Shown in pieces: positions 19,922 through 20,236 of a DNA stretch of 64,000 nucleotides (the first letter of the stretch is position 1; every line of letters starts with the position of its first letter). Under the pieces are notes generated by a model. It did no database searches, was not told the origin of the DNA, and saw only the letters and a program-made list of their open reading frames with translations. The stretch is from Mobiluncus massiliensis (GTDB lineage Bacteria; Actinomycetota; Actinomycetes; Actinomycetales; Actinomycetaceae), in contig NZ_OX458329.1 in the NCBI RefSeq assembly GCF_949769255.1, forward strand, positions 372,001 through 436,000, in the 5' to 3' direction. A program made the translations under genes and the position numbers.

Positions 19922-20236
19922 ATGACGAACACACTAGCGCCGACAATGCAAACAAGTCTAAACCTTACTTCAATTGCAACCGTAAACATTCGCGCACTTT
20001 GCGCCCGTAGTGGCTACTCTGCGTCCGACCTTGCGCGTGCTCTAAAAATGAACCGCACCGCTTTGGGGTATCGTTGGCGCGGTCAGACCGATTGGAGACT
20101 GGAAGAGCTAGAGCAGATTGCCGTAGTGTTTGGTACCACCCCGTGGGACTTGATTACCCCTGCTTTCGGGGACAAATGGAACCCAAATACAAAACAGTAC
20201 GCCATCAGGGACTCGAACCCTGAACCCACTGATTAA
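19922..20236 (+). CDS. Phage immunity repressor, 3' end formed by attR
   Basis: A 104-residue XRE-type regulator with helix-turn-helix SASDLARALKMNRTALGYRWRG (about residues 32-53; that is two motifs, SASDLARALK and MNRTALGYRW) and the EELEQIAVVFGTTPWDLI helix that follows. The last residues are encoded by the att core, antisense to tRNA-Lys, and the TAA is completed by the bacterial base 20236. In the circular phage the frame would run into 3298-3334 and add YGFTQFKVVLVA before TAG. TAAACT 7 nt upstream and no ribosome site suggest a leaderless mRNA. Confidence 0.8.
   Translation: MTNTLAPTMQTSLNLTSIATVNIRALCARSGYSASDLARALKMNRTALGYRWRGQTDWRLEELEQIAVVFGTTPWDLITPAFGDKWNPNTKQYAIRDSNPEPTD
20197..20235. 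repeat. attR core
   Basis: Identical over 39 bp to 3259-3297. It covers the 3' half of tRNA-Lys and at the same time the last 13 codons of the repressor frame on the other strand. Confidence 0.93.

What the first reader, a model, noticed from the sequence alone, without database searches (positions are those of the whole stretch)
19922..20236. Integration-dependent immunity: attP lies inside the repressor gene
In the prophage the repressor frame ends at a TAA formed by two att-core bases and the bacterial base 20236. Joining the core to the phage bases after attL (3298 on), as in the circular phage, changes TAA to TAC and the frame continues for 12 residues, YGFTQFKVVLVA, before TAG at 3332-3334. 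The added tail ends in LVA, like an ssrA-type degradation tag. This is the logic known from mycobacteriophages BPs, Charlie and Giles: the viral repressor is unstable and integration itself makes the stable form. I know of no such system described for this host group.
Basis: partly seen in the sequence, partly recalled or inferred. Interest (0 to 1): 0.93.

Follow-up and report, generated by a model that had tools for sequence, protein, structure and literature searches.

The report
Prophage insertion trims its own repressor
In this Mobiluncus prophage the repressor gene runs into the host tRNA-Lys gene where the phage sits, so a host base ends the protein; in the excised phage the same gene would read on for 12 residues ending in LVA, a tail predicted to mark the repressor for destruction, so that insertion itself likely switches immunity on, a trick known from other actinobacterial phages and found here in a further bacterial family.

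Summary
A 39-bp core (3259-3297 = 20197-20235), the 3' half of tRNA-Lys(CTT), flanks a 16.9-kb prophage. The repressor frame (19922-20236, 104 aa) crosses attR and stops at TAA, whose last base is host. Joined as attP, TAA becomes TAC and the frame runs 12 residues (YGFTQFKVVLVA) to TAG; int starts 9 bases later. Two genus mates show the site without the prophage. This is the anatomy of integration-dependent immunity. Gordonia virions carry the same tRNA-Lys peptide in an otherwise dissimilar repressor, with tails ending AA. In the host's family, 24 of 30 repressor loci read end inside an antisense tRNA. Of 13 distinct joined tails 6 end AA or VA, 0.12 expected. Of protein clusters, 17 of 23 long and 0 of 24 short forms do; among contigs of 10 kb or more, 7 of 9 long but 0 of 13 short forms lie on phage-sized contigs. 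Instability of the long form is predicted, not shown. M. porci and a second prophage of this chromosome have tails without AA/VA. New member of a known kind.

The parts
3259..3297 (.). attL core, 39 bp, copy of the 3' half of tRNA-Lys
   Evidence: identical to 20197-20235
3298..3334 (+). phage arm that codes the viral tail of the repressor (with the two last core bases: YGFTQFKVVLVA, stop TAG 3332-3334)
   Evidence: joined frame; cut off from the repressor in the prophage
3344..4138 (+). tyrosine integrase, 264 aa, ends AAQL
   Evidence: Pfam Phage_integrase 3.3e-15 at residues 108-250; PHROG integrase
19597..19818 (-). divergent small HTH-like gene, cro-like by position
   Evidence: PHROG transcriptional repressor family 1.4e-4; no Pfam match
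19828..19848 (.). candidate operator, TTTTGC-N9-GCAAAA, perfect
   Evidence: pattern chosen from this region, role inferred
19892..19912 (.). second candidate operator, one mismatch
   Evidence: no other copy with up to 2 mismatches in 3259-20236, four in 20237-64000
19922..20236 (+). repressor, prophage form, 104 aa; the end from 20197 on is coded by the tRNA antisense strand
   Evidence: HTH_26 3.9e-7; PHROG transcriptional repressor 1.1e-14
20197..20235 (.). attR core inside the repressor gene
20197..20270 (-). host tRNA-Lys(CTT), intact at attR; gives the repressor's stop codon at its anticodon
3298..20235 (.). prophage, 16.9 kb, with endolysin, tape measure, major tail, capsid-protease, portal and terminase genes
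   Evidence: bounds from the cores and the empty site

Best explanation
The attachment site of this 17-kb phage lies inside the 3' end of its repressor gene, so that insertion into tRNA-Lys would cut the repressor from 116 to 104 residues and remove a 12-residue tail that likely sends the viral form to proteolysis, and immunity would therefore depend on integration. Shown by sequence: the duplicated core, the repressor frame through it, the host-supplied stop, the open joined frame, int directly behind the tail, the empty site in genus mates. Inferred: that excision joins 20235 to 3298; that in the circular phage repressor and int are read together; that the nonpolar end VVLVA is an ssrA-like degron read by the host ClpXP; that the short form is stable and represses by binding the palindromes between repressor and cro-like gene. 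In the prophage int is cut off from the repressor's upstream region; excision would restore the unstable form.
For: Junction and frames; empty site. Host ClpX, two ClpP, own ssrA tag ending TLAA. M. porci has the same design in tRNA-Asn: 39-bp core, TAA to TAC, rep then int. 24 of 30 family repressor loci read end in an antisense tRNA (the 30 are those of 64 matches that came with a locus and include the window). 12 of 26 related loci have a duplicated core of 35 or more bases beside an integrase relative, 15.4-17.7 kb off. 6 of 13 distinct joined tails end AA/VA, 0.12 expected; another joined tail, in tRNA-Met, also ends VLVA (L028). Natural forms: AA/VA ends in 17 of 23 long and 0 of 24 short clusters; 7 of 9 long against 0 of 13 short on 15-18 kb contigs among those of 10 kb or more; P0020 has a 12-residue tail YTFAPVECALVA. 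10 of 11 annotated repressors of phage genomes with a related integrase end AA, the other ends KAS. The repressor model is ordered in the HTH body and disordered at 92-101.
Against: No experiment. 7 of 13 joined tails do not end AA/VA, among them M. porci (WRHEK) and the second prophage of this chromosome (KTAK). Six of 23 natural long forms do not either, and one long form, P0021, sits on a 2.16-Mb contig. Contig lengths of 10 kb or more do not differ clearly as a whole (Mann-Whitney P 0.053). 12 of 26 loci gave no partner core. No sigma-70-like promoter was found at the repressor. No free Mobiluncus phage with an intact attP was found in viral contigs. The window integrase ends AAQL, not AA.
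Confidence: 0.8

Rival explanations
1. The change of C-terminus is real and regulates immunity, but not by an ssrA-like degron: the nonpolar tail disturbs oligomerisation or folding, ties the viral repressor to the membrane, or feeds another protease.
For: Tails without AA/VA in relatives; the M. porci tail has an 18-residue stretch of mean hydropathy 2.2; P0005 ends RFILI, P0015 ends SRTLWR after a hydrophobic run.
Against: The window tail itself ends VLVA, as do or nearly do unrelated ones (L028, P0020), and AA/VA ends are far above chance.
Confidence: 0.12
2. The prophage is defective, so the design is a relic that no longer switches.
For: No induction data; no free relative found in viral contigs; a decayed relative exists in M. 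curtisii ATCC 35241, with a broken integrase.
Against: Integrase, endolysin, tape measure, major tail, capsid-protease, portal and terminase frames are open; cores are identical; the size fits 16-17 kb virions with related integrases and portals.
Confidence: 0.06
3. The overlap of repressor and attP is a chance by-product of packing, and the tail has no role.
For: The tRNA-coded stretch is open in several frames, and tails differ in length and sequence.
Against: Recurrence in 24 of 30 loci, excess of AA/VA ends, absence of such ends in short forms.
Confidence: 0.02

Closest known systems
Gordonia phages McGonagall, EricDab, Emperor, GMA5, SallySpecial (16-17.6 kb genomes; McGonagall and GMA5 named with cluster CW in PMC5559632)
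   Same: Repressor then integrase on one strand, divergent early genes, integrase 38-42% identical, repressor end coded AIRDSNPEPAD where the window has AIRDSNPEPTD, then a viral tail ending AA; tRNA-Lys attB named for McGonagall, Jeanie, GMA5, GRU3 (passages).
   Different: Repressor bodies show no alignment beyond the tRNA peptide (McGonagall); tail ends LVAA or the like rather than VLVA; a gene lies between repressor and int in GMA5.
Mycobacteriophage BPs integration-dependent immunity
   Same: Prophage form 103 and viral form 136 residues, attP inside the repressor gene, int downstream, cro divergent, ssrA-like tail (passages of PMC4557955).
   Different: Tail of 33 residues against 12; BPs shown by experiment, here by sequence; BPs integrase also carries a degron, the window integrase ends AAQL. 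BPs itself was not in the collection; Barkley26, which I recall as its kin, ends DKAS.
Bifidobacterium prophages Bb423phi2 and 689b-1
   Same: About 18 kb, 39-bp core in a tRNA gene, repressor at one att site and integrase at the other, in-silico viral tail of 18 residues called ssrA-like (passages of PMC6109161).
   Different: tRNA-Met instead of tRNA-Lys; another family of hosts.

Membership tests
Integration-dependent immunity (three key features as given in passages of PMC9934374) | attP core lies inside the repressor coding sequence | tested here: met
   Core 20197-20235 is inside 19922-20236 and the frame is open through it; attP itself is joined in silico.
Integration-dependent immunity | Prophage form is shorter because bacterial sequence at the junction gives a stop codon | tested here: met
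   TAA ends in host base 20236; 104 against 116 residues; same base in three genus mates.
Integration-dependent immunity | Viral form bears an ssrA-like tag (two C-terminal alanines in that paper) | tested here: inconclusive
   Tail ends VLVA, one alanine; that LVA works as an ssrA variant in E. coli is recalled; close analogues VLVA and ALVA recur.
Integration-dependent immunity | Viral form unstable, prophage form stable and immune | not testable with these tools
   Needs expression and half-lives.
Integration-dependent immunity | Tyrosine integrase gene beside the repressor in the circular phage, cro-like gene divergent | tested here: met
   int 9 bases behind the tail stop; divergent small HTH-like gene.
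Integration-dependent immunity | attP without arm-type integrase sites (passage of PMC9635641) | not tested
   Integrase is short, 264 aa, with one Pfam catalytic match; arm sites were not sought.
Integration-dependent immunity, BPs subtype | Degron also on the integrase (reported for BPs; not one of the three key features) | tested here: inconclusive
   Ends AAQL; related integrases end AVAA, GAA, SAA and the like.

The most novel reading that the evidence does not exclude
Across phages of this family the anticodon of a host tRNA serves as a plug-in stop codon for the repressor: near-identical Mobiluncus repressors have swapped the whole attP end (tRNA-Lys in the window, tRNA-Asn in P0001) and kept the switch, and in some lineages the ssrA-like degron has been replaced by a hydrophobic, membrane-like tail, so that integration frees the repressor from the membrane or from a second kind of degron.
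Probability: 0.2. Interest if true: 0.72.

Novelty: new member of a known kind. Interest (0 to 1): 0.52.

Why it matters
It takes a very compact lysis-lysogeny switch into Mobiluncus and through its family, and shows two natural populations of one repressor: long forms mostly on phage-sized contigs, short forms on larger ones. Varied tails around one fixed logic make it directly testable which C-terminal ends act as degrons.

Tried and rejected
tblastn of the repressor against phage records gave 15 weak hits, 14 of them Staphylococcus, covering the HTH only; set aside. Viral contigs: the integrase gave one relative, whose contig begins at the int start and so holds no attP (L017); the repressor and its alignment gave none; two attP-type patterns gave 0 matches. 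For 12 of 26 repressor loci no exact partner core beside an integrase was found in the stretches taken: L044, L047, L051, L052, L053, L055, L058 (a copy with 4 mismatches 1.2 kb off), L061, L062, L064, L065, L067. L063 has a broken integrase and L022 only a partial one; both were left out of the tail count. L045 was dropped as identical to L043. L059 was not pursued because its contig ends close by. Of 64 matches I read the 30 that came with a locus. Of 12 loci, 7 end in a tRNA (window included), one (L026) has a stop before its tRNA, four have none.

Clusters P0007, P0024, P0046, P0051, P0052 of the 52 could not be classed and were left out. Long and short forms were told apart by eye from the tRNA-coded motif; the AA/VA class, the 18-kb cut and the 15-18 kb bracket were set after seeing the data. 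Clusters are not independent (15 distinct five-residue ends, 10 with AA/VA), and some are the very loci read. The shuffle moves two-base blocks and is not an exact dinucleotide shuffle.

Full report
Where it is. The window is bases 372001-436000 of a 2.2-Mb chromosome. I do not name the species. The prophage runs from 3298 to 20235 and has integrase, endolysin, tape measure, major tail, capsid-protease, portal and terminase genes. The best listed portal matches are 17-18 kb Microbacterium and Curtobacterium phages.

The observation. The site without prophage is seen in two genus mates, where the left flank lies about 250 and 90 bases from the core. About 1 kb next to attL (2191-3258) is not shared with them.

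The stop comes from the anticodon. Read in antisense, anticodon bases UU with the following A give TAA in tRNA-Lys and tRNA-Asn, and CU with A gives TAG in tRNA-Arg(TCT); tRNA-Arg(ACG) and tRNA-Met are used in other frames (sequences). In 8 of 13 joined frames the codon becomes TAC or TAT; the other five use other frames or, in L046, read TGC.

Relatives. The repressor alignment matched 50 of 213 family genomes at 1e-5, 64 places in all. Of the 30 loci read, window included, 24 end inside an antisense tRNA, 2 are cut by a contig end within the core, and 4 have no tRNA. For 26 related loci I searched the neighbouring stretches: 12 have a duplicated core of 35 bases or more, 15.4-17.7 kb away, beside a relative of the window integrase. 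Their tails include YTAWGLAA (twice), and ends FTLAA, LRLAA, LRGAA, WVLVA, but also LRRAS, YKKSA, VNTFF, FGLAI, GRTYS and, in M. porci, YWLRLMAGLLVLLILVRGCLQWRHEK, whose stop overlaps the int start. With the window and the second prophage of this chromosome, 6 of 13 distinct tails end AA or VA; shuffled arms give 0.12, and none of 200,000 simulated sets reached 5.

Natural long forms. Three protein searches returned 52 clusters, of which 47 could be classed: 24 end at the tRNA-coded core and 23 run on. AA/VA ends: 0 of 24 and 17 of 23. Longest contig over 18 kb: 11 of 24 and 2 of 23 (Fisher P 0.008). Among clusters with a contig of 10 kb or more, 0 of 13 short and 7 of 9 long forms lie on 15-18 kb contigs (P 0.0002), while a rank test on these lengths gives P 0.053. 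This is what integration-dependent forms predict. Against it stands P0021, a long form on a 2.16-Mb contig; and each length is the longest of its cluster.

Named phages. Of 12 phage records read around the integrase, 11 have an annotated repressor or DNA-binding gene upstream: 10 end AA and Barkley26 ends DKAS; Nadezda has none there. Five (EricDab, Emperor, McGonagall, GMA5, SallySpecial) carry the peptide AIRDSNPEPAD, which the window has as AIRDSNPEPTD. BLASTP of the window and McGonagall repressors aligns that peptide and nothing else of note, while the integrases are 38% identical. Different repressors thus use the same tRNA stretch in the same frame.

Machinery. The host has ClpX, two ClpP and a tmRNA whose tag ends TLAA. 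The repressor model has an ordered body and low confidence at residues 1-12 and 92-101, so a tail would hang on a loose end. The palindrome TTTTGC-N9-GCAAAA occurs perfectly at 19828 and with one mismatch at 19892, both between repressor and cro-like gene, and nowhere else in the prophage at up to 2 mismatches; I chose it from that region, so the count is a description, not a test. A promoter scan found nothing.

Literature. Passages only were seen of PMC4557955, PMC6109161, PMC9934374, PMC10865867, PMC5559632 and PMC9635641. The founding 2013 paper is not held. That LVA is a working ssrA variant in E. coli, and that nonpolar C-termini destabilise proteins, is recalled. For Mobiluncus with prophage 15 of 36 papers were listed, for Mobiluncus with bacteriophage and integrase 4, for integration-dependent with immunity repressor and Actinomyces none; these are listings, none was opened.

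Verdict. The anatomy is certain, the switch very likely, the degron likely but untested. It is a new member of a known kind in a further host family, with a side branch of hydrophobic tails that deserves the bench.

Noticed in passing
G000:C1:1202305-1229756 (L147, L148), outside the window: A second prophage of the same design in this chromosome: 27.4 kb between 40-bp cores in tRNA-Met(CAT), integrase at 1202505, a BetR-type HTH frame ending inside the tRNA; the joined tail has 52 residues and ends KTAK, not ssrA-like.
   Followed up: partly
window 2191-3258, gene 2283-3071 (-): About 1 kb between the shared left flank and attL is absent from two genus mates and holds a 262-aa gene without Pfam match.
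   Followed up: partly
window 19121-19600 (+): HIRAN-domain protein coded on the repressor's strand next to the cro-like gene; a similar frame lies beside the M. porci repressor (L019).
   Followed up: no
P0001 against window 19922-20236: Nearly the same repressor body ends in a tRNA-Asn core instead of tRNA-Lys, as if the attP end had been swapped.
   Followed up: partly
G162:C18, about 316500 and 332777 (L093): Repressor remnant directly before the partner core, 16 kb from an intact one: likely tandem prophages in one tRNA-Asn.
   Followed up: no
P0021 (M. curtisii, 2.16-Mb contig): A long-form repressor on a chromosome-sized contig, tail ending RRLFVY; tandem or displaced element, unexplained.
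   Followed up: no
window 4100-4138 and related integrases: Window integrase ends AAQL and that of M. porci AAQF, while related ones end AVAA, GAA, SAA, AAA and the like, as if the integrase degron were altered in Mobiluncus.
   Followed up: no
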